The notes under the pieces were generated by a model, which was not told the origin of the DNA, did not search any database, and saw nothing but the letters and a program-made list of their open reading frames with translations. The position numbers were made by a program, and so were the translations under genes. This document shows, one piece after another, positions 9,376-64,000 of a stretch of DNA of 64,000 nucleotides. The stretch is from Azospirillum thiophilum (lineage in GTDB: Bacteria; Pseudomonadota; Alphaproteobacteria; Azospirillales; Azospirillaceae), in the NCBI RefSeq assembly GCF_001305595.1, contig NZ_CP012401.1, positions 1,809,001 to 1,873,000 of the forward strand, read 5' to 3'. Positions within the stretch are counted from its first letter, which is position 1; each line of letters starts with the position of its first letter.

Positions 9376-9496
9376 CGTATTCAGGCCTCCACAACCTGTT
9401 TTCGTTGGGTTTGATGTTTGATATGCCGCGACCGGCGCCCGGTTGTGTCCGGTGTCTGTCCGATCGGGAATCGGTGGATCGCCATGGGGAGACTCA

Positions 9497-10780: not shown

Positions 10781-10856
10781 GCCCCCCAAGTCTTTCCTCA
10801 CTCCTGTCTTCACACAGCAATCGGTGCTTCCCCACAAGCACCCGCCGCTGGGCGGC

Positions 10857-11819: not shown

Positions 11820-12751
11820 GCGGCATTCTCCACCAGCCAGCCGACCAGCGCGCCGTAGGTGATCCCCACATGCGCGGCCTGTTCGGGCACCAGCGACAGG
11901 GGCGTCATCCCCGGCTGGTTGTTGATCTCCAGGAAATACAGACCGTCGGTTCCCGGCCGGCTGTCGTCCCAGCGGAAGTCGCTGCGCGACACGCCCCGGC
12001 AGCCCAGGGTGTGGTGCGCCAGCACCGCCAGCCGTTTCGCCTCCTCCGCAACGACCTCGGGGATCGCGGCGGGGATGGTGTGGACGGCATGGCCGGCACT
12101 GTATTTCGCGGTATAGTCGTAGACCTGTGCCTGGAAGGCGATCTCGGTAACCGCCAGTGCGCGGTCACCCATGACACCCACGGTCAGCTCACGACCAGGA
12201 ATGAACTCTTCGACCAGCGCGCGTTCCCCGAAGGTCCACGCATCGCCGACCGGGCTGTTCTGCCCTTCGCGGACCAGGGTTACGCCAACGGTCGAGCCTT
12301 CGTCCACAGGCTTGACGATATAGGGCGCCGGCATGGGGTGGGTACCGCCGGTGATCTCCCCACGTGACAGAACCATGCCTTTGGGGGAGCGCACGCCGGC
12401 CGTCTCCAGCACCCGCTTGGTCATCGCCTTGTCCATGGCGATGGCCGACGCCTGGACGCCGGAATGGGTGTAGGGCAAACCCAGGAATTCCAGGATGCCC
12501 TGAATCGTCCCGTCCTCGCCGCCGCGGCCGTGCAGGGCGTTGAACACCACGTCGGGGCGCGGGTGGGTCAGCGCCTGCATCAGCCCGCCCAGGTCGCGCT
12601 GCACGTCGATGGCGGTGACGCGGTAGCCTTCCTCTTCCAGCGCCTTGGCGACGCCGGCGCCGCTGACCAGCGACACCTCGCGCTCGGCCGACCAGCCGCC
12701 CATCAGGACGGCGACATGCTTCTTGTGGGCGTGCAGCAGGGCTTCGGTCAT
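11804..12751 (-). CDS. ddl: D-alanine--D-alanine ligase
   Basis: This 315-residue ATP-grasp enzyme joins two D-alanines for the peptidoglycan stem. Typical features are [17 protein letters not shown] (N-terminal substrate domain), [15 protein letters not shown], the ATP-grasp segment [14 protein letters not shown], and the metal/ATP-binding [17 protein letters not shown]. The ATG at 12751 overlaps the murB stop as ATGA, and its 3' end overlaps ftsQ. The position inside the dcw cluster is that of DdlB. Confidence 0.97.
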
Positions 12752-41258: not shown

Positions 41259-42173
41259 TTGCGGATCTTGATCGTCGACGATTCACCGCGCCATCTGACC
41301 ATGATGGTGTACGAGCTGAACAAGCTCGGCTACGCCACCAGCGTGGTCGAGACCGGCGCGGCCGCCATCGAGGCGGTGGCGAGCGAACGGTTCGACGTGG
41401 TGATGGCCGACATCCGGCTGGACGACATGACCGGGCTGGAACTGTGCTGGCACCTGCGCACCGCCCAGGGGCTGCGCCATCTCTATCTGATCCTGATGAT
41501 CCCCGGCAGCATGACCGACCAGTTCCACGAGTTGGTGGAGGCCGGCGCCGACGAGTTCCTGCGCAAGCCGCTGGACTGGAAATGGACGGCGGCGCGCCTG
41601 CTGGCCGCCTCCCGCGTCGTGGCGATGCAGCGCGACCTGGAAAGGCTGGCGACCACCGACGCCCTGACCGGCGCCCTGAACCGCCGCCGCTTCCTGGAAC
41701 GGGGGGCTGAAGAGTTTACCCGCTCGCGACGATATGATCGCCCGCTGTCGGTGGTGATGTTGGACATCGACCATTTCAAGCGGGTCAACGACACCCATGG
41801 CCATGCCACCGGCGACGAGGCGATCCGCGCCACCGTGCGCGCCTGCAAGGAGACCTTGCGCGCCTGCGACATCATCGGCCGCCTGGGCGGCGAGGAATTC
41901 GCGGTGGTGATGGCCGAAACCCCGCCGGTCAACGCCTTCGCCGCGGCCCAGCGCCTGCGCCAGAAGATCGCCGCGACCGCCATCCCGCTGGAGTCCGGCG
42001 GCGAGTTGCACCTGACGGTCAGCCTGGGCCTGGGATGGCTGAATGCCAGCGACACCGGCATCGAACCCATTCTGGCCCGTGCCGATACCGCCCTCTACCG
42101 CGCCAAGAATGCCGGCCGCAATCGGGTGGATGTCGAGCCGCAGATCGGTTTGCCGAAGTCGTTGGCGGGGTAG
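41259..42173 (+). CDS. Response regulator with GGDEF (diguanylate cyclase) domain
   Basis: The receiver domain covers residues 1-120, with acidic pocket DD near residue 7-8, phosphoacceptor Asp51 (MADIRLDD) and Lys103. The GGDEF domain (~130-295) has GGEEF at 210-214 and an intact inhibitory I-site RACD five residues before it. It should make c-di-GMP from two GTP when phosphorylated and be product-inhibited. The start is TTG 41259, preceded by GGGAGC. No ATG would give the full receiver start RILIVDDSP. The cognate kinase is not in the window. The bidirectional terminator at 42276-42314 follows. Confidence 0.93.
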   Translation: MRILIVDDSPRHLTMMVYELNKLGYATSVVETGAAAIEAVASERFDVVMADIRLDDMTGLELCWHLRTAQGLRHLYLILMIPGSMTDQFHELVEAGADEFLRKPLDWKWTAARLLAASRVVAMQRDLERLATTDALTGALNRRRFLERGAEEFTRSRRYDRPLSVVMLDIDHFKRVNDTHGHATGDEAIRATVRACKETLRACDIIGRLGGEEFAVVMAETPPVNAFAAAQRLRQKIAATAIPLESGGELHLTVSLGLGWLNASDTGIEPILARADTALYRAKNAGRNRVDVEPQIGLPKSLAG

Positions 42174-42275
42174 GGGCGGGGCAAGGGGCGGTTGCAGGGT
42201 CGGCCCGGCATCATCGATGCTCCCGACGTCGGCGGAGCCGCAATCGACTGTATGCCCTCTTGAATCCGCACAAAG

Positions 42276-42314
42276 AAAAACCCCCTGACTTCCTCGCGGA
42301 AACCAGGGGGTTTT
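42276..42314. terminator. Strong bidirectional intrinsic terminator
   Basis: AAAAACCCCCTG and CAGGGGGTTTT form a perfect stem with poly-A and poly-T flanks, so it can stop transcription from both sides. It separates the core genome from the accessory region and lies just before direct repeat copy 1. Confidence 0.9.
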
Positions 42315-42319
42315 CAATG

Positions 42320-42376
42320 ATGGTAGCAGCGGAGTGCTGCCACCGTTACAGTCCTACCATTGAGATCGACTGCTGA
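42320..42376. repeat. Direct repeat bracketing the accessory module, copy 1
   Basis: A 57-base segment repeated at 46344-46400 with 46 of 57 identical positions (my manual count). Six of the differences fall at codon third positions if read in frame, and both end in IEIDC plus a TGA stop. The shared tail CGTTACAGTCCT...GAGATCGACTGCTGA is near-identical. It may be an att-like duplication at the end of a gene or two copies of a small element. Confidence 0.65.
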
Positions 42377-42401
42377 AGCTGGAGATCAGCTTTGACGGCA
42401 T

Positions 42402-43622
42402 TCAAGCCGCCTCTATCCCAGCCACTGGCGCAATAAGTGTAGCGAGCAGTTCAATGTTTCCTTCATCCGCTGCCTGCAACGCAGTATAATAAGCCGCTCC
42501 TCTGTCCAACAAGCTCATGTTGGCCACACCAAACATATCCAAGGTTTGCTGCATCAATATTGCCCTAGCCGCCCGTCCATTTCCATCCTCAAACGGATGA
42601 ATCATCAAGAACTTTGCATGGAAGTTTGCAATTGATCGGAGCTTGTCCTTCGGCTTGGCCGTCGCCAAGCGGCTGTACTGGCTACTCCACTCTTTACAAA
42701 GCTTTTCTATCAGCTCAGGAACCTGATCTGGCGAAATCGGCTCAAGGTACTGTGAATTTGGTTGTCCCACACGAGACAGATGAACTCGCCCCATCCGGAA
42801 CCGCCCAACAGCACGAGATGGCAAATCAAAGCACGTAAGCCGATGGAAGCCCATCACAAGAGAAGGGGTCAGCTTTTCGGTTAAAGGCTGCACCGTCGGT
42901 TCGGCCTGAAAATCTTCATAAGACAGATGATCAGGCGTAGGAGGTATCAAAGATACCTCAACACCCTGAGAAAACGCCACCTCCCCCAGCGTACGATTCA
43001 TATAATCCTGCCCCATAGCTAGCCTATCCAATCTAAGAGATAGGTTCCTCAACTCCCTATTATTTAGATCAAGAGCATTTTCCAGCCGGTTACTGGACTC
43101 AGAAAACCAAGCAAGCTGTTCTTCAACGGTCATCCCAATACCAAGGTACTGAATGCGGATGCCGTATCCTGACGGAGAATCCAAAATTCCCCTTATGCGC
43201 TCCAAATAAAATATCTCGCCTTCCTTGCCTACATCAGCGGCAATCTTCTTGAGCGATTCCCTCTCCCCAATAGTTAAAGACTGATTTGTAACGAAAACCA
43301 ATCCATCTCGAGCATGCCTAACAGGGCCGTCGAGGTCATGCTTAAATTTCTTCTTAACATTAGCAAAACTTACCAAACCGTTTGGGAAATAAACAGCAGC
43401 AACCCAACGCTTCCCGCCCTTTTCACACAGTATATCTTTTCGTCCATCAGGCCCTCCCAGTGGCGCCTGTGGATCTATATCTTTGAATCCAGCCAAGTCC
43501 AATACGGCGGCAGCTAATCTCTCAGTCTTGGTCGCGCCATCACGCCAGACCATCAACTTGAGTTCGGTGTCGTTTGCGGCCATCAGCCTCAAGGCCTCGT
43601 TTATTTCTAGGTGCTTCCTCAT
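42402..43622 (-). CDS. Fic-domain protein with N-terminal nuclease-like domain
   Basis: Fic enzymes transfer AMP (or related groups) onto Ser/Thr/Tyr of target proteins. The catalytic motif HPFEDGNGRAAR is complete near residues 342-353. SNRLEN, ~130 residues upstream, matches the (S/T)xxxE(G/N) inhibitory helix, which would make it a class II, self-inhibited Fic. The N-terminal ~110 residues (LAGFKDID...GGPDGRKDILCEKGGKRWVAAVYF) resemble a PD-(D/E)xK-type nuclease fold, though the ExK position is occupied by other residues. Start ATG 43622; ATG 43682 is possible, and neither has a clear ribosome-binding site. The gene is strikingly AT-rich (22 of 60 G+C in 43021-43080), a sign of recent transfer. 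Confidence 0.85.
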   Translation of the reverse strand: MRKHLEINEALRLMAANDTELKLMVWRDGATKTERLAAAVLDLAGFKDIDPQAPLGGPDGRKDILCEKGGKRWVAAVYFPNGLVSFANVKKKFKHDLDGPVRHARDGLVFVTNQSLTIGERESLKKIAADVGKEGEIFYLERIRGILDSPSGYGIRIQYLGIGMTVEEQLAWFSESSNRLENALDLNNRELRNLSLRLDRLAMGQDYMNRTLGEVAFSQGVEVSLIPPTPDHLSYEDFQAEPTVQPLTEKLTPSLVMGFHRLTCFDLPSRAVGRFRMGRVHLSRVGQPNSQYLEPISPDQVPELIEKLCKEWSSQYSRLATAKPKDKLRSIANFHAKFLMIHPFEDGNGRAARAILMQQTLDMFGVANMSLLDRGAAYYTALQAADEGNIELLATLIAPVAGIEAA

Positions 43623-43856
43623 AGTATCAAAACACACCACGATGCAACAGGCATTCACGCCGTAATCAGAATAAGAACGCATGGGAAATTACTGATACAT
43701 CTTCCCACCGGCGTAACGCTCGCTCTCATTAAAAAGGAAATCCTCGGCGAAAGACTGCCAGAAGCTCCACATATTTGAGTATGCTCAACTTTACTGGGGC
43801 CCAATCCCGTTCGGTCACCGGTGCGCCCATGGCCGCTTCCTTTCTAGCCGTCCCCG

Positions 43857-44624
43857 TCAGAACTTGACTAGAACAGTGAGTTGGTAATCGTGCCGCTCCT
43901 GGACTACCCTCTTGTAGTCTGCGGAGATCTTGACGAACTTGGGCACCTCCAGCCGCCCCACCACGCTCAACGTGCTCTGAGCCTCGCTCGACAGGTTCAC
44001 CTTGACCCTCCTGCTCTTGATCTGGTTGGCGCCATCGCGCCGCATCTCGATCAGGGACCGCATGTTGGGATCCCCCATAAGCCCCGTGCGCCGCAGCAGC
44101 CGCTCGGCCGCGGTCACGTCCGGTGGGCCCCCCGTGAACTCGTCGTGTAGGTCCATCTGGGAAAGCACCTTCGCCAAGTCCTCGGCCTTGCCCTTGACGC
44201 TGCCCTCCGCGCCGAGGCGGGAGCCCTTCATGTCGAGAGACTGCTCCCCCTTGCTCGTGCTCAGCGTGATCTGCTCGACGCTGACCTCCGTGGCCCCGAG
44301 ATGACGGCACAAGACCGAGAAGTACATGTGCTTGGCGAGCGCAAACCGCTGGGGTGCGAGGTAGGCCTCCTCGTAAGTGTCCACATTGAAGGGGCTCTGC
44401 ACCAGCATCGCACCCGGACGCAGGAGTCCGGCCTCTGAGAGGTTCCGGAGGGCCTGGGGGCTGTCTTCGCCCACGGGGAGCGGCAGGGGCAGCACGTAGG
44501 TCTCGTCGTCGACGAGCGTCCGTTCGGCGCCGGGCTCGTACTGGCAACGCTCCACCTCATGCCGTTGGAGCACCAGAATCGCCTTGCGGCTGCCCGGATC
44601 AGATGGGAAAGAACCGGTCGACAT
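43857..44624 (-). CDS. Unknown 255-aa protein, third gene of a GTPase cassette
   Basis: I do not recognise a family. It is soluble-looking, without membrane segments or signal peptide. The N-terminal third (KAILVLQRHEVERCQYEPGAERTL...YVLPLPLPVGED) looks mainly beta. The central part is helical (YLAPQRFALAKHMYFSVLCRHLGA), and the end is rich in charged strands (VKFVKISADYKR-like). The start ATG 44624 follows GGAGG at 12 bases. It lies 70 bases downstream of a tail-anchored protein gene and appears to be the last of three co-oriented genes (45925 to 43857). The base composition is typical of GC-rich genomes and unlike the AT-rich Fic gene next to it. Confidence 0.7.
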   Translation of the reverse strand: MSTGSFPSDPGSRKAILVLQRHEVERCQYEPGAERTLVDDETYVLPLPLPVGEDSPQALRNLSEAGLLRPGAMLVQSPFNVDTYEEAYLAPQRFALAKHMYFSVLCRHLGATEVSVEQITLSTSKGEQSLDMKGSRLGAEGSVKGKAEDLAKVLSQMDLHDEFTGGPPDVTAAERLLRRTGLMGDPNMRSLIEMRRDGANQIKSRRVKVNLSSEAQSTLSVVGRLEVPKFVKISADYKRVVQERHDYQLTVLVKF

Positions 44625-49827: not shown

Positions 49828-50028
49828 CCGCGGCACTCAGCGGATGCTTACTGCGCAGGCGAGGGTAGCCGAACTGGAAGGCCGAGCGGCACTCGGGAAA
49901 TGGCCGAGATCGGCTCCCCGGCTGCCCTCGACTTTGGAAGCTCGCACGCTGGAACCGGCTCCGGTGACAAGACGAACTGCCTGGCGTCTGGAGGAATCCT
50001 GCGCTCCCCGAGGAGTTGCACGTCTTGC

Positions 50029-50040
50029 TAATGCGCATTA
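50029..50040. promoter_or_regulatory. Candidate ccdAB operator palindrome
   Basis: TAATGCGCATTA is a perfect 12-base palindrome 28 bases before the ccdA start. CcdA-type antitoxins autoregulate their operon by binding palindromes in the promoter, so this is the likely operator. The 49852-50068 stretch between IS66 and ccdA has no gene I can support. Confidence 0.5.
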
Positions 50041-50068
50041 TCATACACACGATACGGCGGAGGACGAT

Positions 50069-50362
50069 ATGAGTCACATCCAGCGGACCGCAACGGGCTA
50101 CGATGTCGGGGCGTCGAAGAAGCGTGTCAACCTCACGCTCAACGAAGACCTCGTTCGCGTCGCCCAAGCCTACACCGACAACCTCTCCGGGACCATCGAG
50201 ACGCTCCTCGCCACGTGGGCGCAGACGGAACGGCGGAAGCGGGAGGACGATCAGGAACACCGTCGGAAGGTCGCCGCGGCGTGGAACGCCTTCGACGAGC
50301 GGCATGGTCGCTTCGCCGACGAGTGGAACCGGGACTTCATGCCGGACGACGAGACCCGCTGA
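50069..50362 (+). CDS. ccdA: CcdA-like antitoxin
   Basis: The 97-residue protein has the CcdA ribbon-helix-helix start (KKRVNLTLNEDLVRVAQAYTDNLSGTIE) for DNA binding. A charged C-terminal region follows, with AWNAFDERHGRFADEWNRDF, which resembles the segment that wraps CcdB. ATG 50069 follows GGCGGAGGA. The stop overlaps the ccdB ATG (TGATG), the classic toxin-antitoxin coupling. Confidence 0.9.
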   Translation: MSHIQRTATGYDVGASKKRVNLTLNEDLVRVAQAYTDNLSGTIETLLATWAQTERRKREDDQEHRRKVAAAWNAFDERHGRFADEWNRDFMPDDETR

Positions 50363-50673
50363 TGCCGCAGTTCGATGTCCACCGCAACCCGGGTCGCACC
50401 AGGGCCGCGATCCCGTTCGTCCTCGTCGTGCAGGGCGACCGCTGGAAGGACCGCGCCGATCGCGTCGTCGCACCGCTGGTTCTGGCGAGTGAAGTGGGGT
50501 ATCGCGACCCGACCTTGAACCCGGACTTCACCATCGACGGCACGGCGGTCATCCTGAACCCGCTCCAGATGGCGACCATTCCCACCCGCGTGCTCGGTCC
50601 TGCGGTGGGGAATCTCGACGGCGACCACATCCGGATCATTGCCGCGCTTGATGCCCTAATCGCACAGGGATAA
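50362..50673 (+). CDS. ccdB: CcdB-like toxin (DNA gyrase poison)
   Basis: The 103-residue protein matches CcdB: FDVHRNPGRTRAAIPFVLVVQ at the start, DRVVAPLV and GTAVILNPLQMATIPTRVLG in the centre, and a C-terminal helix (IRIIAALDALIAQG) like the gyrase-contacting end WGF in F-plasmid CcdB, though that exact ending is not present. CcdB traps gyrase-DNA cleavage complexes. Coupled to ccdA; the pair sits between IS66 and the defence-like operon and may help keep the island. Confidence 0.9.
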   Translation: MPQFDVHRNPGRTRAAIPFVLVVQGDRWKDRADRVVAPLVLASEVGYRDPTLNPDFTIDGTAVILNPLQMATIPTRVLGPAVGNLDGDHIRIIAALDALIAQG

Positions 50674-50783: not shown

Positions 50784-53700
50784 TCATTCTTCTTCGAACC
50801 CGTGGCTGGTGAATTTCAGGGTACGGCTGTTCTCGGTGATGGTGCGAACGAGATGATCCGGCACGCCGTTGGGCAGATGAGCGGCGATCTCGAGCGTTAC
50901 CGTCACCTCGGTTCCCATCAAACCGACCAGATGGGAAATGACCTCTTCCGCGATGCGTCCGGCATCTCTTCCGACACGCATGGCATCGAGTGGCACAGTA
51001 CCGTGAAAACGCCGCAGCACCCGCTCGCGCGGCGTAACTGAACCACTTACGCTATTGCCGACGAACACACCGGTGGCTTCCTGCATGGAGGTCGGTCGGC
51101 TTGCGTCTCCCTCTGGCACGGCAAAGACAACCGGAGCGGGAGCCGAGGCATCTTCGGCCTGCTGCCGAACCGCGACGTCCGGCTTCACCAGAACACCCTC
51201 GAGGCCGTCAGCCGACAGGGACGACGGCTTTCCGCATCGCAGCCCGCGGTACCTGTTTCCAGCCTCATCGAAGCTGTCGGCGTAAGCGAACGTCTCGCGC
51301 TCCCAGAGCAGGGCGCTCAATCCGTCGCCGACGGCGGCGGCGAGAACTTGTGAATCTCGCAAGCGAGGCAGGTACAGATAGCGGGCGAAGTCCTCGGCGA
51401 GTTGCTTCACCGCGACATGATTGCCGCGCCATAGCGGAACGCGGTCCAACTCCATGCGCAACCGGGTACCGGCGAGCGCTGGGATGAACAACTCTTCACT
51501 GCGCAGCTTCTTGCTCGCCCGAACGGCCAGCGCGTCCTGACCCGTCAGTTTGAACGCCTTCCATTCCATCGGCGACTGCGGAGTTTCCTGGATGGGTACG
51601 ATGAGCCACTGATAGGATTCCGGCATCCGTGCGGCGACGGTGCTGTCGGCGATCTTCATCTGATTGTCGGCTTGCTTGACCTGCTGCGGATCCAGGTTCA
51701 GCCCGTCCTTCTGGGAAACGATCGACTCCCACGCAAGGTAGCGGCGCACAGCTTCGTCGAGATCCTGAAGGCGGGTCTGGTCGACCGCCAGAAACACCAG
51801 GGCATTCTGATACAATCGGGGCGCGCTGCCCCTGGAGTCCAGGATGGCCTTGGCTGCGGCCTGCGCCCGATTGGCCGGATCCTTGCTGTAGGGGTGATCG
51901 ACGCCGAGCACCACCAGTCGGGCCTCCATGTCGTCGGACACGTCGGCGCCCGTGCGCGGCAACTCGTGGATGCGTCGGAAATCACCGCTGGTGCGGAGAT
52001 CACGCGCGAGCCGCTTGCCGATTTCCTCGGCAACGGCGTCGGGGTTGCGCTTGTACTGCTCGGCCCGATCCTCCGCCATCTTGGTGACGGTCGGCTGGGT
52101 CGAGTACCAGTATCGGGCGCCGTCCTGGTACAGGTAGGTGGCGGCGTTCGACAGACGGCGAAGCGCGTCCCCGAACAACGCCGGCGCTTCCCCCGGCATC
52201 ACGCAGCCGAGCTTGATGCGGCGATCCTCGACGCCCCGGTTCGCCGCTGTCGCAGTGGGGGCGGTTCCGAGATAGATCGTGCGCGCCACCCGGCGGCAGG
52301 CGGAGATCCGGCTGAGATTCGTGGCGCTGGCGTCGATCTGCAACGGCAGGGCGTTGGGGCCGTCCACGTCCTTCTCGATGATCGGCTTCCAGATGTCGGG
52401 CAGGTAGCGCGTCAGCTCATCGCGCACGCGTGGGTCGTCGATCTGAAGGTTGCCCGGCATGATCAGGGGATTGCGGTCTCCCCGCTCCCACAGGCTGTGG
52501 ATCACCGCCGCCATCAGGCGCAGGACGCCGCGGGTGCGCTGGAACTTCACCAGCGTGGACCATTCGGTGTAGAGCCGGTCGAAGATCTCCGGGTGGATCG
52601 GGTAGGCCGCCTTGATGCGCCGCTCATAGTCGATGTCGCGGCATTCCGGCGGGAATTCCTGACCCTGGTCGTTGTAGAGTTCGTGAAACTCACGCGCCAC
52701 CGCGTCGCGGGCGACGAACTGCGACCGATCCAGCAGCGGTTCGAACAGCCGGCGTCGGACGATTTCGAAGCCTTCCTCGGTGCTGGCCGGCGCCCACGAG
52801 GACTCCACCCGACCGATGACGTTGCGCAGCCGGTCCAGGGCCGCCCGGCCCCGCGCGCCGCCGACCTCCTCGTCGTCGGCCCGCGCGTGCGGGGACACGG
52901 CGGTGTCGGAGGCCGGAAGGCTGATGACCAGCAGGCAGTTGCGGGCGAGCTTCGCCGATTCCGTCAAAGCCTGGGCGAAGGAGAAATGCGTCTCGAAACT
53001 GCCGCCCGGCAGATCGGACTCGTCGTGAAGCTGACGGGCGTAGGCGACCCATTCGTCGATCAGGATCAGGCACGGCCCGTATTCGTTCATCAGCTCGCGC
53101 AGGGTGTCGCCGGGGCTGGTCGCCCGTTCGTCGTCGGCCCGCAGACGCTCGAAGGCGGGACGGCCGCCGAGTTGCCACGCCAGTTCACCCCACAGGGTGC
53201 GCACGGTCACGCCGTCCGGCTTCACGCTGGGGTTGCCGGGGGAAATCTTGTTGCCGACGAGTACCACCCGTTTGACCGATTTCGGCAGCGTGTTGATGCC
53301 GCTCTCGCTCAGCAGGGCATCCACCCCCAGCAATTCGCCGGGCGCCGTCCCGGAGAACAGATGGTAAAGCGCCAGCATGGAGTGGGTCTTGCCGCCGCCG
53401 AAGTTGGTCTGAAGCTGCACCACCGGGTCGCCGCCCTGGCCGCACACCCGCAAGGCGGCGCCTTTCAGGAGCTGCTTCAGGCTCTCGGTCAGGTAGGTGC
53501 GGCGGAAGAATTCGGCGGGGTCGCGGTATTCGTCGCTGCCCTCGCGCAGATGGACCTGCCACAGGTCGGCGGCGAATTCGGCCTGCTGGTAGCGGCCGCT
53601 GGCGACGTCGCGGTGCGGGTTCACCACCTCGCGCCATGGCTTCATCGTGCCGGCGGCGAGGCTTTCCACGGCGGTGCCCGTGGTCTTGCGCCGTTCGCCG

Positions 53701-54140
53701 CGCATCTGTTCCTCGAAGACCAGACGGCGCAGTTCCATCTTCATCCGGGCGACGTCGTCGGCCTGCGGCGCCGAAACGGCGGTCAGCAGGCGGGCGATGC
53801 TGTCGAGGCCACGGTCGGCGTCGTCGCTCGAAAAGGGTTCCTGATGCGCCCAGCGGTTGCGGACGCCGCGGATTTCCCCGACCAGACTGCGTTCCGCCGG
53901 CCCCAGCGTCGCGCGGAACACCTCGTTCCAGCTTTCCCACATCAGTTTCAGCAACGGGGCGACGTCCCAATCCGAAGGCGGGCGATTCTTTGTCAGCGCG
54001 TCCTCGGCGAAGCCGCGCAGGGCTGGGATCGTCACCCCCCCCTTCAGCGCGGCGGTGAGTTCCCGGTCCACATAGGGGCCGAGACCCGCCTTCAGAAGAT
54101 CGAGCGCCTTGCCGACGCGTTCTTGGTTGGTCATCGCCAT
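50784..54140 (-). CDS. DUF499-family ATPase with N-terminal HEPN-like motif
   Basis: This 1118-residue protein belongs to the predicted AAA+-like ATPases known as DUF499 (COG1483). The P-loop is NFGGGKTHS (~residues 246-254), and LILIDEW is the likely Walker B. The first ~125 residues are helical with RNRWAH at 94-99, fitting the Rx4H motif of Swt1-type HEPN RNase domains. The C-terminal part has charged repeats and ends GVPDHLVRTITENSRTLKF. DUF499 proteins have been noted next to DUF1156 methylases in defence islands, and their mechanism is unknown. ATG 54140, or the ATG two codons later. It is the last gene of the minus-strand operon. Confidence 0.88.
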   Translation of the reverse strand: MAMTNQERVGKALDLLKAGLGPYVDRELTAALKGGVTIPALRGFAEDALTKNRPPSDWDVAPLLKLMWESWNEVFRATLGPAERSLVGEIRGVRNRWAHQEPFSSDDADRGLDSIARLLTAVSAPQADDVARMKMELRRLVFEEQMRGERRKTTGTAVESLAAGTMKPWREVVNPHRDVASGRYQQAEFAADLWQVHLREGSDEYRDPAEFFRRTYLTESLKQLLKGAALRVCGQGGDPVVQLQTNFGGGKTHSMLALYHLFSGTAPGELLGVDALLSESGINTLPKSVKRVVLVGNKISPGNPSVKPDGVTVRTLWGELAWQLGGRPAFERLRADDERATSPGDTLRELMNEYGPCLILIDEWVAYARQLHDESDLPGGSFETHFSFAQALTESAKLARNCLLVISLPASDTAVSPHARADDEEVGGARGRAALDRLRNVIGRVESSWAPASTEEGFEIVRRRLFEPLLDRSQFVARDAVAREFHELYNDQGQEFPPECRDIDYERRIKAAYPIHPEIFDRLYTEWSTLVKFQRTRGVLRLMAAVIHSLWERGDRNPLIMPGNLQIDDPRVRDELTRYLPDIWKPIIEKDVDGPNALPLQIDASATNLSRISACRRVARTIYLGTAPTATAANRGVEDRRIKLGCVMPGEAPALFGDALRRLSNAATYLYQDGARYWYSTQPTVTKMAEDRAEQYKRNPDAVAEEIGKRLARDLRTSGDFRRIHELPRTGADVSDDMEARLVVLGVDHPYSKDPANRAQAAAKAILDSRGSAPRLYQNALVFLAVDQTRLQDLDEAVRRYLAWESIVSQKDGLNLDPQQVKQADNQMKIADSTVAARMPESYQWLIVPIQETPQSPMEWKAFKLTGQDALAVRASKKLRSEELFIPALAGTRLRMELDRVPLWRGNHVAVKQLAEDFARYLYLPRLRDSQVLAAAVGDGLSALLWERETFAYADSFDEAGNRYRGLRCGKPSSLSADGLEGVLVKPDVAVRQQAEDASAPAPVVFAVPEGDASRPTSMQEATGVFVGNSVSGSVTPRERVLRRFHGTVPLDAMRVGRDAGRIAEEVISHLVGLMGTEVTVTLEIAAHLPNGVPDHLVRTITENSRTLKFTSHGFEEE

Positions 54141-54171
54141 GTGCAGAAACTTTCCGGTCCGGTGGCCAGCG

Positions 54172-54819
54172 TCAGAGGAAGGCGCGGTTGATGGTGACCT
54201 TCAAGGTCTTGGGATCGACGGGATGCTCGGCGACGCGGCCGCGGCCGGAAGCGTTCTTGATGCGGATGCCCCGCCCATCGTCGCCCCAGTCGGTTTCCGC
54301 CTCGCATTCGCGCAACCACTGGATGAGGCGCGGGAAATGCCGGTTGGCCCCGACATTCATGCGCAGTTCGATGGAGGCGGACACACCAATGCGTTTCAGC
54401 GCGTTGCGCAGGAAGATGTTCATTGGAACATCGACCAACTCATCGTTGCTTGCCATTTCTGCCGCAACTTCATAGATCGCCTGCTTGACCTGATTGGGAG
54501 TCAAGTCGTCCATGTCTTGGATCCGCGCCATTTCGACATCATTCCCAGACACTTCAGCGATCAGATCTTCCGCCGAATCGGGAGTCGGAATATCGAGTTG
54601 TTCAGCGATTCCCTGGAAATCCGTTCTCGACTGAAGCTTGCTCTTGAGGAGTTCAAGAACGCTCTTGAAGCGATCGGTGGGCGTGTAGCCGGTGATCGGC
54701 ATCGGCTCGCCGAATTGCTGCTCCCAGGCGTTGGCGATCGCCGTGATGACCTTGTGATAGGTCATGGAACTGATCTTCACACCTAAGTGACTGTAGCCAC
54801 TCTCATTGAGTGAGTGCAT
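54172..54819 (-). CDS. Unrecognised 215-aa protein between methylase and DUF499 ATPase
   Basis: No family recognised. The start ATG 54819 has a good GGAGAG site, 14 bases after the methylase stop. The N-terminal part (MTYHKVITAIANAWEQQFGE) is amphipathic and helical. The middle is very acidic (DSAEDLIAEVSGNDVEMARIQD), and the C-terminal third (SIELRMNVGANRHFPRLIQWLRE) could bind a partner. The coding strand is somewhat AT-richer around 54430-54640 than its neighbours. Fixed position in the operon suggests a subunit or specificity factor for the methylase/ATPase pair. Confidence 0.75.
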   Translation of the reverse strand: MHSLNESGYSHLGVKISSMTYHKVITAIANAWEQQFGEPMPITGYTPTDRFKSVLELLKSKLQSRTDFQGIAEQLDIPTPDSAEDLIAEVSGNDVEMARIQDMDDLTPNQVKQAIYEVAAEMASNDELVDVPMNIFLRNALKRIGVSASIELRMNVGANRHFPRLIQWLRECEAETDWGDDGRGIRIKNASGRGRVAEHPVDPKTLKVTINRAFL

Positions 54820-54833
54820 TGGGCTCTCCGCGA

Positions 54834-57826
<2,993 letters not shown>

Positions 57827-57827
<1 letters not shown>

Positions 57828-58304
57828 CAGTCACAATCCTCTTCGGGCGCCCAGGGCGGCGGAGCGCCGGGCAGCGTCATCTCAGCGAAACGCTGGCTTA
57901 TCGCATGGGCGGCGTCGGAAGGCGACCGGCACGCCAACCCGCCGAGCGCCCGTAGGACGTTGCGCACCAGCTCGTCGTCGCGGACCAGCGTGGGGAACAG
58001 GCGATGGTGGACGAACCGCTCCCAGCTCTGCGCCGGATCCGACGTGGCGGGGGCGAAGAGGTCGGTCTGCGGGTCGTAGAGTTCGTCGCGGTACCGCCGG
58101 CAGAGATCCTGCCATGCCCGGCCAGAGCGGCGCGAGATCCACAGGATCGGCCTGACCCAGCGTCACCAGCGGCCCGGCACGGTCGCGTGGCTGTTCCAAC
58201 AGGTCCATCGCGCGCAGGAAACGGCGGCGGCACAGGGAGTAGAGAGCGAACAGCGCGGCCTTGCCGCCGTCCGCTTGATGGGTGGTGAGATCCTCGCGGG
58301 TCAC
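57827..58304 (-). CDS. Small unknown gene, frameshifted, between helicase and methylase
   Basis: The GTG at 58304 overlaps the helicase stop (GTGA) and starts MTREDLTTHQADGGKAALFALYSL. This frame degenerates after ~45 residues. Another frame, free of stops, runs from about 58162 (RWVRPILWISRRSGRAWQDL) through DELYDPQTDLFAPATSDPAQ to a C-terminus ending WAPEEDCD. Its TGA shares a base with the methylase ATG. Joining them needs a one-base deletion near 58160-58175. The joined protein would be ~158 aa, mostly helical, of unknown function. Coupling at both ends implies a real gene; the break may be sequencing error or true decay. Confidence 0.65.
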
Positions 58305-61300
58305 GACGGTTGTTCCGAGCGGGCGATCAGGGTGGCGAACTCATAGTTGACGCTCGCCGCCTCGAAATCCGGTTCGCGGTGGAAGGGGCGGCGCAGGTAG
58401 TGGACCCGGTGCGCGCCGTCGTCGAGAAATTCAACCATCGCGAGGATGAAGTCCTCCGGCTTGTTGAGCGAATAGAGGATTTCGTTGCGGGTTACGGTGA
58501 TCGTTGCCGCCCCGGACACCCGACCCTTCACCTCGATGAAGCGCAGGCGCCCGGTGCCGGGAACGCGGCTTTCGATGTCGTAGCCCAGCTTCTCGAACTC
58601 CCGATCGACGGGGGCGAAGCCCAGCCCACGCTCGATCTCCATGACGATGGCGCGGGCGCGGGCGCCGACGGCCTGGGTGTCCACCAGAGTGGCGGGGTTG
58701 GCCGGAAGGGCGCCGGTCATCGTCGCGAGCAGCCCGGCGGGGACCACGAGCAACCCGCCGAGGATCACCGGGGGGAGCGGCGCGATCTGGCGCTCGCGCT
58801 TGATCTCGTCGATCCGCTTTTCCAGGCGGGCCTGGAGGGTGTCGGCCCGCTTGCGCGCCTCGCCGGAATTCAGGCGGGCGTTCGGCTTTCCGGCCTTTTC
58901 CTGGTCCTTCAACTGCTCGGCCCGGAAATCCCAATAGGTGATCTCCTTCATCAGCCGTTCCTTGACCGCCGCCTCCGTCCGGTCGAGAAGCGCCAGCTTG
59001 CGGGCGCGGACCTCGCCCAGATGTTCGGGCACGACCTGGGCGATGGCGTGGGCCTGGGCGCGGGACTCCAACTCACGGGTGATCCACGCGCATTCGGGGC
59101 GGTCGAGGATGGTGGCGGCGTCCGGTTCCCCAGCCGCCATCGGGCGGTAGTCGAGATAGGGCGCATAGTGCAGGTGGCGGGTGGCGCCAGCGCCGTCGAT
59201 TTCAACGAACAGCAGCCGTTTGGAGACGATGCGGCGCTCGCCGTTGCGGGTGGTGCTGCCGTCCTGGATGGCGTGTTCGAGGAAGAAGAGGACACGGGGC
59301 GTGACGCCGGGATCGCGGTCGTCCACCAGGACGGTGCCGCGGCGCAGCAGATCGCGGTGACGTTCCAGGGTCAGGTCGATGACGGCGTCGAGAAGGGGAT
59401 GGCCCGGACAGACGAAGGCGGCGGGCGGCTGACCGGGCGGAGCCACCAGCGTCTTGTCGAAGGCGATCCGTTCGTAACGGGGCAAGACCGGCTCGCCGAT
59501 GCCGATCAGCCGGTCGCGGTTGCGGATCGGGGCCGGAACGTGAGTGACCTCATAGCGACGCGGCTCCCGCTTCTTCGCCGTTCCGCCCAGGCGATGGAAG
59601 GCTTCCAGGAAGAAGGATTCGATGTAGTGGGGTTGAAGCCGTTTCGCTTCCGCGCGCTCCATCTCCTCGCGGATGCGGTGGACCCGGCTTGCGTCCATCG
59701 CGTCGTGGGCAAGCGCGCGGTCCTCGAGAAGATCCTTGAGTTGATCGGGGTCGAAGGCGCTCTCGACGACCCTGGTCAGGCGGGCGCGGACCTCGGGCAT
59801 TTCGCCGTAGCGGATGGCTTCGATCAGGAGTTCGCGGAGCGGGCGTCCCTCGAACTGGAGCTTGCCCAGGACATCGAACACCTGCCCGCCGAGCGCCGTC
59901 CGGGCCTGCCCCAGCTTTTCCAGGAGCTTGGTGTAGACGTCGCCCTCACGGGTTTCGTGAGCGACGAGATTCCACAGGTGGCAGACCTCGGTCTGGCCAA
60001 TACGATGGATGCGGCCGAAGCGCTGTTCGAGACGGTTCGGGTTCCAGGGCAGGTCGTAGTTGACCATGAGATGGGCGCGCTGGAGGTTGATGCCCTCGCC
60101 AGCCGCGTCGGTCGCCAGAAGGACCTGGACCTCGGGGTCGTGCTTGAAGGATTCCTGAGCCTTCAGGCGATCCTCGCGCCCCATGCCGCCATGGATGGCG
60201 ACCACCGCCTCGCGGCGACCAAGCAGAGTGGCGATGCGGCTTTCCAGATAGTTCAGGGTGTCGCGGTGTTCGGTGAAGATGACCATCTTCTGATGCGGCG
60301 ACGGCGTCGGCTTGGCGATCACCGGAACACCGGCATCGTAGGGGGCCTGCTCCTCGGCGAACTGATTCCCGATGGAGGCCGGCGTGAAGATCTCTCCCAG
60401 GAGCGTTGCCAACTCCCGCCATTTCTTGTCGTCACCGCTGCGGCGGATCGCCGAGGCCATGTTCTCCAGGCGCTTCAGCGTCTCGATCTCGATGCGCAAC
60501 TCGGCGATGCTGCGGGCGGCGGTCGCCTGGTCAAGGATCTGTGCCTCGGCGGCTTCAAGCTCGTTTTCGGGCGCATCCTCGAGATCTTCGACATCCTCCT
60601 TGTCGAGGACGTGCAGTTGGGTGGCCATCGACGCGGCGAGCTGGTCGGGTCGATGGAGGATCTCCATTTCCCGGAGACGGCTTTCCAGCCGCTCGCGCCG
60701 GCGGCGAAGCGATTGATAGATCGCCTCCGGTGAGGACGCGAGCCGCCGTTGCAGAACCGTCAACGCGAAGCCGACGGTGCCTGCCCGCTTGTCATTCTCC
60801 AGCGCCTCGGCGCGGTTGAACTCCTCCCGCACATATTCGGTCACCGCCTTGTACAGGTCCTCCTCGGTGTGAGAGAGCTTGTAGGGGACTGTGTAGGCGA
60901 TACGTTCCGGGAACAGCGGGGTCGCGTCGAACTTGAGCAGGTTCTCCTTGACCATGCGGCGCATCAGATCGGACACGTCGGCGGTGTGAACGCCGTCACG
61001 AAAACGCCCCTCGAAACGATCACCGTCCAGCAACGCCATGAAAAGCTGGAAGTCCTCTTCCTTGCCGTTGTGAGGCGTGGCGGTCATCAAAAGGAAGTGA
61101 CGGGTCAGCGTCGACAGGAGTTGCGCCAGCTTGTAGCGCTTCGTGTATTTGATTTCGCCGCCGAAGAAGGTGGCCGAGAGTTTGTGCGCTTCGTCGCAGA
61201 CAACGAGATCCCAGCGGCAATCAGGAGTCTGCAGCTTTTGCTGAACGTCTTCGTTCCGTGATAGCTTGTCGAGGCGGGCAATGACCAGATTCGTTTCCAG

Positions 61301-61888
61301 AAACCAATTTCCTGTTCGAGCGGCCTCGAGCTTGTCGTTCGTCAGGATTTCAAACGGCAAGTTGAAGCGGCGGAAAAGCTCGTCCTGCCACTGTTCGGCC
61401 AAACTGCCAGGGCAGACGACGAGGCAGCGTTGAAGATCGCCGCGGGCGATCAGCTCCTTCATGAGCAGGCCGGCCATGATCGTCTTCCCCGCACCCGGAT
61501 CGTCCGCCAGAAGGAAGCGGAGCGGCTGGCGGGGAAGCATTGCCTCGTAGACCGCCGTGATCTGGTGTGGAAGCGGTTCGACCACAGACGTGTGGACTGC
61601 CAGAACGGGATCGAACAGATGGGCCAAGTGGATACGCTGTGCTTCAGACACGAGCCGGAAGGAGTGTCCGTCGCCGTCGAAGCTCCATGGGCGCCCTTGC
61701 TCGACGAGTTCGATCCGAGATTCGTCATGGCGGTAGAGCAGCTCATTGGCCACCTTACCGGTGGCGTCCTTGTAGGTCAGCTCCAGGGCTACAGAGCCAA
61801 ACCACTGAACGTTGACAACCGTGACAAGCCCGTTTGGAAGGATGCCTCGAACTGATGCACTCGTTTGCAGTTCCTCAAGACGCGCCAT
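58301..61888 (-). CDS. SNF2-type helicase with C-terminal DUF3883/nuclease-like domain
   Basis: The 1195-residue protein has a full SF2/SNF2 motor: Walker A DDPGAGKTIM (~129-138), DEAH (232-235), motif III TATPHN, and the C-terminal RecA motifs DAAGEGINLQRAH and RFGRIHRIGQ. Between the motor and the end is a long charged region with coiled-coil tendency. The last ~110 residues match DUF3883: FEKLGYDIES followed by FIEVKGR (~1118-1122), a D...ExK pattern typical of PD-(D/E)xK nucleases. It resembles the large SNF2-like helicases of defence arrays such as DrmD in class 1 DISARM. It is the first gene of the minus-strand operon. Confidence 0.9.
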   Translation of the reverse strand: MARLEELQTSASVRGILPNGLVTVVNVQWFGSVALELTYKDATGKVANELLYRHDESRIELVEQGRPWSFDGDGHSFRLVSEAQRIHLAHLFDPVLAVHTSVVEPLPHQITAVYEAMLPRQPLRFLLADDPGAGKTIMAGLLMKELIARGDLQRCLVVCPGSLAEQWQDELFRRFNLPFEILTNDKLEAARTGNWFLETNLVIARLDKLSRNEDVQQKLQTPDCRWDLVVCDEAHKLSATFFGGEIKYTKRYKLAQLLSTLTRHFLLMTATPHNGKEEDFQLFMALLDGDRFEGRFRDGVHTADVSDLMRRMVKENLLKFDATPLFPERIAYTVPYKLSHTEEDLYKAVTEYVREEFNRAEALENDKRAGTVGFALTVLQRRLASSPEAIYQSLRRRRERLESRLREMEILHRPDQLAASMATQLHVLDKEDVEDLEDAPENELEAAEAQILDQATAARSIAELRIEIETLKRLENMASAIRRSGDDKKWRELATLLGEIFTPASIGNQFAEEQAPYDAGVPVIAKPTPSPHQKMVIFTEHRDTLNYLESRIATLLGRREAVVAIHGGMGREDRLKAQESFKHDPEVQVLLATDAAGEGINLQRAHLMVNYDLPWNPNRLEQRFGRIHRIGQTEVCHLWNLVAHETREGDVYTKLLEKLGQARTALGGQVFDVLGKLQFEGRPLRELLIEAIRYGEMPEVRARLTRVVESAFDPDQLKDLLEDRALAHDAMDASRVHRIREEMERAEAKRLQPHYIESFFLEAFHRLGGTAKKREPRRYEVTHVPAPIRNRDRLIGIGEPVLPRYERIAFDKTLVAPPGQPPAAFVCPGHPLLDAVIDLTLERHRDLLRRGTVLVDDRDPGVTPRVLFFLEHAIQDGSTTRNGERRIVSKRLLFVEIDGAGATRHLHYAPYLDYRPMAAGEPDAATILDRPECAWITRELESRAQAHAIAQVVPEHLGEVRARKLALLDRTEAAVKERLMKEITYWDFRAEQLKDQEKAGKPNARLNSGEARKRADTLQARLEKRIDEIKRERQIAPLPPVILGGLLVVPAGLLATMTGALPANPATLVDTQAVGARARAIVMEIERGLGFAPVDREFEKLGYDIESRVPGTGRLRFIEVKGRVSGAATITVTRNEILYSLNKPEDFILAMVEFLDDGAHRVHYLRRPFHREPDFEAASVNYEFATLIARSEQPS

Positions 61889-62361
61889 ACTCTGTCACCC
61901 TTGATCACGTCATGGAACGCCGTGGATTCGTCATCTGGACGTGCGGCTACCGATCGGATTTTGCTCATTGCAGTTTTAGCAGAACGCATATTGCACGGCA
62001 AAGTGCGAAACGCTCTCAGCCTGCTCAACCAAAATCCAGTTTAATGTGATAGACGCGAGGGAATGAGGGCAGGAGGACGAGACATTCGGCCGAGCGCCAA
62101 TCGGGATTTTTAATGAAGAGAATCATGCTCTCTAGGTGGTGCGACGGTTGCAATCTAAAGGAAGCTTTTAGAAAATCGAACTCTCATGAAAATATGCATT
62201 TTCTGATTGCTCTAACGCCAGCGCTGAGTCGTCTCTGCTCGTCGGCATAGGATGTCCTCGGCTCAACGACCGGTCGCATCCCGGAAAGCGTGTGTGATAT
62301 GCTTTGGCCTCGCGCTAAAGAAACATCAAACGTGATCTTTCAGGCTGGGGCGGCGATTATC
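61889..62361. other. Divergent intergenic region of the defence-like operons
   Basis: 473 bases, noticeably AT-richer than the genes, lie between the helicase start and the divergent DUF4011 gene, and should contain both promoters. TGTGATATGCT near 62291-62301 resembles an extended -10 for the rightward gene. I see no clear operator, RNA gene or repeat. Confidence 0.5.
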
Positions 62362-64000
62362 ATGAGCGACAACAACGAAGCGGTGCTGGATGTCGTGGTG
62401 GATCGGGCGCCGACGGAGGCGCCTCCGCCCATCCGCATTGAGGCGACGTTGACGCCACGTCTGAACCTCGCCTTCTATCAGAACGCGGTCCCGGTACTGC
62501 GTGAGCTGGTGCTGGTCAACGACGGCGACGCTCCGCTGGAGGCGGTCGAACTGACCCTGACTTCGGACCCCGCCTTCCTGGCCCCGAAGACTTGGCACAT
62601 CGACGCCGTTCCCGCCGGACAGCGCTATCATGTGCCGAAGCTCGACCTTATGCTGGACGGCGCCATGCTCGGGCGGCTGACGGAGGCGGAGAGCGCGACC
62701 GTCACCATCACAGCCTCGAGGAGCGGGAGCGCCGACATGCCCCTGGCCCGGAGCGAACGGTCGCTCGAACTGCTGGCGCGCAACCAGTGGGGCGGCGTCG
62801 GCAACGTTCCCGAGATGATCGCTGCCTTCGTCCAGCCGAACGACCCGGCTGTCGAACGTGTGCTGAAGAAGGCCGCCGAAATCCTGCGCCAGAACGGTAA
62901 GAGCGGGTCGCTGAATGGCTATGATGGCGGGCCGAAACGGACCTGGGAACTGGCCGCCGCTGTCTGGGGCGCGGTCGGTGCACTGGGCCTTGACTACGCC
63001 CTGCCGCCGCCCAGCTTCGAGCATGCCGGGCAGAAGGTGCGTGGGCCCTCGCAGATTCTGGACGCCGGACTAGCCACCTGTCTGGATTCCACCCTTCTCT
63101 TCGCTGCGGCGCTGGAGCATTGCGGGTTGAACCCGCTGATCGTCTTCACGCGCGGCCACGCCTTCGCCGGCGTCTGGCTGCGGCGCGAGGAGTTCACCAC
63201 GCCGGTGGTCGATGATGTGACGGCGCTGCGCAAGCGGGCGAAGCTGAAGGAACTGGCGCTGTTCGAAACGACGCTGGCGACCCAGCGTCCATGCCCGTCC
63301 TTCGCCGTCGCCATCGATCATGCCTTCCGCCAGATCGAAGGGGAGGCCGCGGACGCGTTCGAACTGGCCGTGGACGTCCGCCGCGCCCGCCTGCAACGTA
63401 TCCGGCCGCTGGCCAGCGCCGAGTCCATGGTGGCGGCGGAGCACGCCGACGTGACCGCCGAGACGTCCGAGCCGCTGTTCGCGGAAGCACCGGCTGACCT
63501 TCCCGACGACCTTGATGACGTGGCGGACGGGGGGGCGGCGGATGCGGGGCCGACCTCGCCCAAGGACCGTCTGGAACGCTGGCAGCGCAAGCTGCTGGAC
63601 CTGTCGCTGCGCAACACCCTGCTGAACTTCCGCGCCGGGAAGCGTGCCTTGGTCTGCGACGCTCCGGACCCCGGCCTGCTGGAGGACCTTCTCGCGGAAG
63701 GCCGGACGCTGCGCCTGCTGCCCCGGCCGGCGCTGATGGATGGCAGCGACCCGCGCAGCCAGGCGATCCACGAGGGGCGCACCCTCGAGGATCTGCACCG
63801 CCAGCACGCGCTGGAGGCGCTCGGCCGCAACGAGGTGCTGGTCGGGTTGAAAGGGGAGGAACTCGACGCGCGGCTGACGGAGCTGTACCGCACCGCCCGC
63901 GCCGCGATGCAGGAGGGCGGGGCGAACACCCTGTTCCTGGCGCTCGGCTTCCTGTCCTGGACGCGCGACGCCAAGGACGCGAAGCGCCACCGGGCGCCGC
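62362..64000 (+). CDS. DUF4011-domain protein (large helicase-type), N-terminal part
   Basis: The frame is open from ATG 62362 to the window edge (546 codons seen, no stop). The N-terminal ~130 residues are a beta-rich domain (LNLAFYQNAVPVLRELVLVNDGDAPLEAVEL). A segment with GLATCLDSTLLFAAALEHCG and later FTRGHAFAGVWL follows, resembling the Cys-His core of a transglutaminase-like fold. RLERWQRKLLDLSLRNTLLNFR and ALEALGRNEVLVGLKGEEL mark the start of DUF4011. Known DUF4011 proteins continue with a superfamily 1 helicase and a Vsr-like nuclease, which would lie beyond the window. It is transcribed away from the helicase-methylase operon. Confidence 0.85.
   Translation, partial: MSDNNEAVLDVVVDRAPTEAPPPIRIEATLTPRLNLAFYQNAVPVLRELVLVNDGDAPLEAVELTLTSDPAFLAPKTWHIDAVPAGQRYHVPKLDLMLDGAMLGRLTEAESATVTITASRSGSADMPLARSERSLELLARNQWGGVGNVPEMIAAFVQPNDPAVERVLKKAAEILRQNGKSGSLNGYDGGPKRTWELAAAVWGAVGALGLDYALPPPSFEHAGQKVRGPSQILDAGLATCLDSTLLFAAALEHCGLNPLIVFTRGHAFAGVWLRREEFTTPVVDDVTALRKRAKLKELALFETTLATQRPCPSFAVAIDHAFRQIEGEAADAFELAVDVRRARLQRIRPLASAESMVAAEHADVTAETSEPLFAEAPADLPDDLDDVADGGAADAGPTSPKDRLERWQRKLLDLSLRNTLLNFRAGKRALVCDAPDPGLLEDLLAEGRTLRLLPRPALMDGSDPRSQAIHEGRTLEDLHRQHALEALGRNEVLVGLKGEELDARLTELYRTARAAMQEGGANTLFLALGFLSWTRDAKDAKRHRAP

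What the first reader, a model, noticed from the sequence alone, without database searches (positions are those of the whole stretch)
50784..62361. Five-gene helicase-methylase-ATPase defence-like array, with two unassigned small genes
Seen: an SNF2-like helicase ending in a D...ExK domain, a small coupled gene, a DUF1156 methylase, a 215-aa protein and a HEPN-DUF499 ATPase. All are on one strand with overlaps or short gaps, next to ccdAB, IS66 and a divergent DUF4011 gene. Known: DUF1156 (COG1743) and DUF499 (COG1483) occur together in defence islands, and SNF2 helicase plus methylase is shared with DISARM. The core DISARM genes drmA/drmB/drmC and the BREX gene pglZ are absent. Inferred: this is a restriction-modification-like anti-phage system whose two small genes may be unstudied subunits.
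Basis: partly seen in the sequence, partly recalled or inferred. Interest (0 to 1): 0.78.

Follow-up and report, generated by a model that had tools for sequence, protein, structure and literature searches.

The report
Hma defence operon with embedded cargo
This is a complete copy of an already named bacterial anti-virus gene set (Hma: helicase, methylase, ATPase), and the two extra small genes look like exchangeable cargo slipped between its genes rather than parts of the machine.

Summary
The array is real and its three large genes are a known system. They match PADLOC HmaA (1716 bits), HmaB (1491) and HmaC (1152). Hma was named in 2021 and re-described in 2026 as a Type-1 BREX-related system. 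The motifs looked for are intact. The two small genes match no family at E<=0.001 and behave as cargo. The one between hmaA and hmaB is broken by a one-base frame change (or an assembly error); unbroken 158-aa relatives were found in two other Hma loci only. The 215-aa gene was found in 0 of 107 fetched loci with an HmaB relative but in 6 plasmid records; the 3 examined lie outside Hma. Of 53 loci with the three genes in order, 45 carry at least 300 bases in one or both gaps; same-genus copies hold Septu, HEC-03B-like, TmtA-like and MNT/HepT genes there. Embedding in Hma is already in print. Verdict: a new member of a known kind with two uncatalogued embedded genes. The anti-phage reading is supported by family; the subunit reading is not.

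The parts
58301..61888 (-). hmaA: SNF2-type helicase (1195 aa) with C-terminal PD-(D/E)XK-like NOV_C domain
   Evidence: PADLOC HmaA E=0, 1716 bits, residues 1-1194; Pfam Helicase_C, SNF2-rel_dom, NOV_C; GAGKT, DEAH, QRFGRIHRIGQ and D...ExK strings
57827..58304 (-). footprint of the broken small gene (sm158 family): 5' part in the frame starting GTG at 58304, 3' part in another frame ending on the hmaB ATG; frame change near codon 60
   Evidence: continuous-frame homologues at L048:12508-12984 and L071:9446-9922
54834..57827 (-). hmaB: DUF1156 DNA-adenine methylase (997 aa)
   Evidence: PADLOC HmaB E=0, 1491 bits; DUF1156; DPFAGGG at 188 and DPPY at 601
54172..54819 (-). p215: 215-aa gene of unknown family, 14 bases after hmaB and 31 bases before hmaC
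   Evidence: no PADLOC, Pfam or NCBIfam match at E<=0.001; six plasmid records with homologues at 34-45% identity; alignment A2
50784..54140 (-). hmaC: HEPN(Swt1)-DUF499 AAA+ ATPase (1118 aa)
   Evidence: PADLOC HmaC E=0, 1152 bits over residues 165-1117; HEPN_Swt1 residues 11-123 and DUF499; RNRWAH at 94, GGGKT at 248, LILIDE at 358
49844..50673 (+). neighbouring ccdAB-like toxin-antitoxin pair (ORFs 49844-50362 and 50215-50673); context, not part of Hma
   Evidence: Pfam CcdA and CcdB
62290..64000 (+). start of the divergent DUF4011 gene, which continues past the window; context, a second defence candidate
   Evidence: DUF4011; full 2149-aa ORF (L171:791-7240) matches PADLOC PDC-S37 at 1222 bits and Hhe at 604 bits

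Best explanation
The array is a complete Hma (Type-1 BREX-related) restriction-modification-like anti-phage system carrying two embedded cargo genes. Inferred mechanism: HmaB methylates adenine in host DNA and marks it as self. HmaC, an AAA+ ATPase, assembles on DNA and helps recognise unmarked invader DNA. HmaA moves along it with its SNF2 motor and cuts with its C-terminal PD-(D/E)XK-like nuclease. The HEPN RNase on HmaC may act as a last-resort cell-suicide effector. The junctions hmaA/hmaB and hmaB/hmaC are cargo slots where other defence or toxin-antitoxin genes are inserted and lost. Here they hold a decayed sm158 gene and an apparently intact p215 gene. Family membership and the slot pattern are shown by computation; every biochemical step is inferred from domains and from published proposals.
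For: Best matches of all three large proteins to HmaA, HmaB and HmaC at E=0 over most of their lengths. Domains and the motifs looked for are intact. A Type-1 BR system with HEPN-DUF499, DUF1156 MTase and helicase-REase is described in PMC12839542 (passages), Hma in PMC8565338 (passages). Slot variability: of 53 loci with hmaA-hmaB-hmaC in order, 8 have under 300 bases at both junctions, 20 carry at least 300 only at A/B, 6 only at B/C and 19 at both. Six of 37 same-genus genomes, the own included, have an HmaA match above 1500 bits (matches at E<=0.001 alone mean little, since the helicase model rings in all 14 control genomes). The five others carry different cargo: MNT/HepT plus a 230-aa gene (L047), sm158 plus an ASCH gene (L048), PtuAB (L049), a TmtA-like gene (L050), an HEC-03B-like ATPase (L051). 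L049 also keeps a deleted remnant of the MNT/HepT cassette of L047.
Against: No phage or methylation data exist for this copy in what I saw. The 2021 paper calls HmaB an m5C methyltransferase, whereas the PADLOC model text, the 2026 paper and the DPPY string point to adenine. HmaB and HmaC score far under the cut-offs of the NCBIfam anti-phage DUF1156 and DUF499 models (118 of 1000 and 175 of 1200 bits), which therefore describe other lineages. The two cargo genes have no assigned function, so 'cargo' rests on distribution. sm158 was found only in Hma loci, which would also fit an optional Hma-specific accessory.
Confidence: 0.9

Rival explanations
1. One or both small genes are dedicated Hma subunits or specificity/regulatory factors; sm158 would be an optional, Hma-specific accessory.
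For: The sm158 footprint overlaps the hmaA stop and the hmaB start, so it looks translationally coupled. All three members found (window, L048, L071) lie in the hmaA-hmaB junction. None was found in 72,556 plasmid records, 50,697 phage records or a pattern scan of viral contigs, and among 385 class genomes only the own genome matched.
Against: sm158 is in 1 of 107 fetched loci with an HmaB relative, 1 of 5 other same-genus Hma loci and 0 of 5 plasmid Hma loci, and is broken here beside an intact core. p215 is in 0 of 107 and occurs outside Hma. In 8 of 53 ordered loci both junctions are under 300 bases, too short for either gene.
Confidence: 0.12
2. The frame change in the small gene is a sequencing or assembly error and the gene is intact in the living strain.
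For: Both halves are still conserved (66% identity over residues 1-61 and 62% over 63-157 of the L048 homologue), and the 3' part is open up to the hmaB start, as expected for an error or a very recent mutation.
Against: No second assembly of the strain was compared. Loss of another slot cassette is seen in L049, so real decay is plausible.
Confidence: 0.4
3. The array is a DISARM or BREX variant rather than Hma.
For: HmaA is related to DrmD (394 bits in PADLOC, 359 in NCBIfam) and to BrxHI/BrxHII (310 bits).
Against: The HmaA score is 1716 bits; the NCBIfam DrmD score is under its cut-off of 610. No PglZ, DrmB or DrmC match appears in the outputs (complete for the other four proteins; best 25 of 55 and 25 of 29 for HmaA), and the DrmA match of HmaA is 203 bits.
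Confidence: 0.02

Closest known systems
Hma (helicase, methylase, ATPase), Payne et al. 2021, PMC8565338 (passages read)
   Same: All three core proteins, encoded together; PADLOC models match at E=0.
   Different: Two embedded genes without any PADLOC match; HmaC here carries an N-terminal HEPN domain ahead of the part matched by the HmaC model (match starts at residue 165).
Type-1 DUF499-centred BREX-related (BR) system, 2026, PMC12839542 (passages read)
   Same: HEPN-DUF499 ATPase, DUF1156 MTase, Swi2/Snf2 helicase with C-terminal REase-like domain; no DUF3780 match.
   Different: No difference found in the core features tested; p215 and sm158 are not mentioned in the passages seen.
HEPN (Swt1-like)-DUF499 R-M operons, Ava_2192 group, 2013, PMC3710099 (passages read)
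   Same: HEPN fused to a DUF499 AAA+ ATPase in an operon with a SNF2 helicase fused to an REase (DUF3883).
   Different: A description of the class; no cargo genes treated in the passages seen.
Hma-embedded candidates (HEC), Payne et al. 2024 preprint (not read; known from citing passages, and from PADLOC model names)
   Same: Extra defence genes placed between hma genes; L051 of the same genus holds an HEC-03B-like ATPase (517 bits).
   Different: Neither p215 nor the sm158 proteins scanned match a HEC model.
DISARM and BREX
   Same: Related SNF2 helicases (DrmD, BrxH) and a methylase-plus-ATPase logic.
   Different: Core markers not met (see Membership tests).

Membership tests
Hma | HmaA helicase, HmaB methylase and HmaC ATPase encoded together | tested here: met
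   1716, 1491 and 1152 bits, E=0, on one strand within 11.1 kb
Hma | anti-phage activity | not testable with these tools
   needs phage challenge
Type-1 BR system | DUF499 ATPase (often HEPN-fused), DUF1156 MTase, helicase with C-terminal REase, no DUF3780 | tested here: met
   no DUF3780 among the Pfam matches of the five proteins nor among the NCBIfam matches shown (best 25 of 29 for HmaA)
Type-1 BR system | N-terminal TUDOR domain on the helicase and RRM at the DUF499 C-terminus | not tested
   large proteins were not folded
Hma-embedded candidate (HEC) | match of the embedded gene to a described HEC protein | tested here: not met
   P0002 and P0004, P0008 and the L071 protein have no PADLOC match; the window's 3' fragment was not scanned against PADLOC by itself
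Type-2 BR system | stand-alone DUF3780 protein and HKD-helicase | tested here: not met
   p215 has no Pfam or NCBIfam match; HmaA has NOV_C and no HKD/PLD domain in Pfam; its NCBIfam phospholipase-D anti-phage match is 160 bits in the helicase part, under the cut-off of 1100
DISARM | drmA, drmB and drmC core genes | tested here: not met
   no DrmB or DrmC match shown for the five proteins; DrmA and DrmD matches of HmaA are weaker helicase matches, DrmD under the NCBIfam cut-off; rest of the window not scanned
BREX | pglZ gene | tested here: not met
   no PglZ match shown for the five proteins; rest of the window not scanned for it

The most novel reading that the evidence does not exclude
p215 and sm158 are two undescribed embedded gene families: p215 a mobile, defence-island stand-alone anti-phage or regulatory gene, and sm158 a small, probably helical, Hma-restricted factor that modulates or guards the Hma machine.
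Probability: 0.35. Interest if true: 0.45.

Novelty: new member of a known kind. Interest (0 to 1): 0.2.

Why it matters
It removes a supposed new five-gene system and replaces it with a known system plus cargo. The leftover value is two uncatalogued gene families found by embedding, a route that has already yielded working defence genes in Hma loci according to citing papers. It also gives a same-genus series in which slot contents differ, and in one case are partly deleted, around a constant core.

Tried and rejected
Structure prediction of p215 alone (mean pLDDT 51.7) and of the L071 sm158 relative with one fragment row (47.7) was too poor to use, so no fold search was run. Predicted secondary structure is mostly helical in both, with low confidence. 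PDB sequence search gave one match for p215, at E=0.11, and none for HmaB or HmaC at E<=0.001; HmaA hits RapA-type and other SNF2 helicases. PHROGs gave three matches for p215 at E=0.08-0.12 and none for the two sm158 pieces; Pfam at a loose limit gave CobW_C at E=0.21 for the 3' piece. All were set aside as chance.

Weak hits rejected: G630 for sm158 (E=1.1e-4) falls in an open frame that overlaps other long open frames, with no Hma gene match in the 15 kb around it; I judge it spurious and do not count it. A weak L154 match (E=0.098) is not counted. G1043 (E=1.0e-4) is an N-terminal p215 piece in a 78-aa ORF, noted but not counted as a full member.

Considered and dropped: DISARM and BREX membership; p215 as DUF3780 (no match). 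A programmed frameshift in the small gene was not tested. Three of the six plasmid records with p215 were examined. Alignment A5 misplaced a fragment and was not used further.
Full report
What is there. On the minus strand, in order of transcription, lie a 1195-aa helicase (58301-61888), a small gene footprint (57827-58304), a 997-aa methylase (54834-57827), a 215-aa gene (54172-54819) and a 1118-aa ATPase (50784-54140). The large proteins carry SNF2/Helicase_C plus NOV_C, DUF1156, and HEPN_Swt1 plus DUF499. The motif strings I looked for are present in all three: GAGKT, DEAH, QRFGRIHRIGQ and YDIES...FIEVK in the helicase; DPFAGGG and DPPY in the methylase; RNRWAH, GGGKT and LILIDE in the ATPase. 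That these strings are helicase, nuclease, methylase, HEPN and Walker motifs is recalled knowledge.

What it is. PADLOC models HmaA, HmaB and HmaC match at 1716, 1491 and 1152 bits, all E=0; the HEPN part of HmaC precedes the part matched. Hma was proposed in 2021 as a three-gene candidate system frequently found with Septu type I (PMC8565338, passages). A 2026 study calls the same group Type-1 BREX-related systems, describes HEPN fusion, DUF1156 methylase and helicase-nuclease fusion, and cites an experimental study as confirming a phage-defence role of the helicase (PMC12839542, passages). A 2013 HEPN survey described the HEPN-DUF499 fusion in R-M operons (PMC3710099, passages). The NCBIfam anti-phage DUF1156 and DUF499 models match only far under their cut-offs (118 of 1000 and 175 of 1200 bits).

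The first small gene. Against the 158-aa homologue of a same-genus genome (L048:12508-12984) the window matches in two pieces: residues 1-61 at 66% identity in the frame that starts on the hmaA stop, and residues 63-157 at 62% in another frame that ends on the hmaB start. The footprint is 478 bases, and third-position GC agrees with a change of frame in the middle, though with weak contrast at both ends. The gene is therefore broken by a one-base frame change near codon 60, or the assembly has an error there. A third, unbroken member lies directly before hmaB in an Acidobacteriota MAG (L071:9446-9922; 39% identical to the L048 protein, 46% and 32% to the window's 3' and 5' pieces). Searches: 1 of 107 fetched loci with an HmaB relative, 1 of 5 other same-genus Hma loci and 0 of 5 plasmid Hma loci, 2 of 82 order genomes (own and G010), 1 of 385 class genomes (own), 2 of 297 genomes of the L071 phylum, one of them rejected, 0 of 72,556 plasmid records, 0 of 50,697 phage records, none confirmed in a pattern scan of viral contigs.

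The second small gene. p215 has no match in PADLOC, Pfam or NCBIfam at E<=0.001. tblastn found it in 6 of 72,556 plasmid records, all Agrobacterium or Rhizobium, at 34-45% identity. I examined three of the six places. One is a few kb from an AbiEii-type toxin gene (L039), one is beside a dpd cluster (L040), and one lies between PtuAB-like genes and a DUF499 ATPase in two ORFs that best match the other PADLOC DUF499 model (L041). None of the three shows an HmaA or HmaB match in the fetched stretch; L041 has a 26%-identity match to HmaC, which is that DUF499 gene. p215 was found in 0 of 107 fetched loci with an HmaB relative. It was found only in the own genome among 82 order genomes and 385 class genomes. 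Among 398 phylum genomes it was found in the own genome plus one weak partial match. It had no match in phage records, and pattern scans of genome and viral contigs confirmed none.

The slots. A scan with an HmaB alignment confirmed 555 relatives, of which the best 80 were kept. In 53 of these 80 the three genes are in order on one strand; 8 of 53 have under 300 bases at both junctions, 20 have at least 300 only between hmaA and hmaB, 6 only between hmaB and hmaC, and 19 at both. Three more have all three genes rearranged, and in 24 at least one of hmaA and hmaC was not detected, in some because the contig ends. Of 67 loci with a detected HmaC, 29 match from the HEPN end. An HmaA match above 1500 bits occurs in 6 of 37 same-genus genomes, own included. 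The five others have different cargo: MNT/HepT with a 230-aa gene (L047), sm158 with an ASCH-domain gene (L048), PtuAB (L049), a TmtA-like gene (L050) and an HEC-03B-like ATPase (L051). L049 also keeps a remnant at the hmaB-hmaC junction that aligns with the start (83%) and the tail of the L047 MNT/HepT cassette; the tail piece (98%) runs on into hmaC. Embedding of defence genes in Hma, Septu included, is already in print as stated by citing papers; the source preprint itself was not read.

Mechanism. The most likely working model is the published one: self-marking by HmaB, recognition and assembly by HmaC, destruction by HmaA, and a HEPN RNase as back-up. Nothing biochemical was tested. The small genes are best read as embedded cargo, one decaying and one apparently intact. 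Against this, sm158 was found only in Hma loci and is coupled at both ends, so an optional accessory role is not excluded.

Setting. The divergent DUF4011 neighbour is a 2149-aa ORF that matches PADLOC PDC-S37 at 1222 bits and Hhe at 604 bits, and a ccdAB pair and an IS66 element lie on the other side. The locus therefore appears to sit in a defence island.

Verdict. An ordinary, complete Hma system with two uncatalogued embedded genes; interest is modest.

Noticed in passing
window 62290-64000 and beyond (L171:791-7240): The divergent DUF4011 gene is a 2149-aa ORF matching PADLOC candidate PDC-S37 (1222 bits) and Hhe (604 bits), a second defence candidate directly beside Hma.
   Followed up: partly
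L049:9907-10079: Deleted remnant of the MNT/HepT toxin-antitoxin cassette that is whole at the same hmaB-hmaC junction in L047, a snapshot of cargo loss.
   Followed up: partly
L050:7824-12059: 1411-aa TmtA-like gene (183 bits) embedded between hmaA and hmaB in a same-genus genome.
   Followed up: no
L048:11673-12485: 270-aa ASCH-domain protein embedded after the intact sm158 gene and before hmaB; no PADLOC match.
   Followed up: no
L041:20952-24052: DUF499 ATPase in two overlapping ORFs that match consecutive halves of one PADLOC model, so probably frame-broken, about 8 kb from a p215 homologue.
   Followed up: no
L043 (Thermus oshimai plasmid) 8001-12032: hmaB relative split in two pieces around an annotated IS4-family transposase gene, with hmaA and hmaC relatives on either side.
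   Followed up: no
window 42001-44000: G+C falls to 0.524 against 0.66-0.71 in the first 40 kb, suggesting foreign DNA near the island edge.
   Followed up: no
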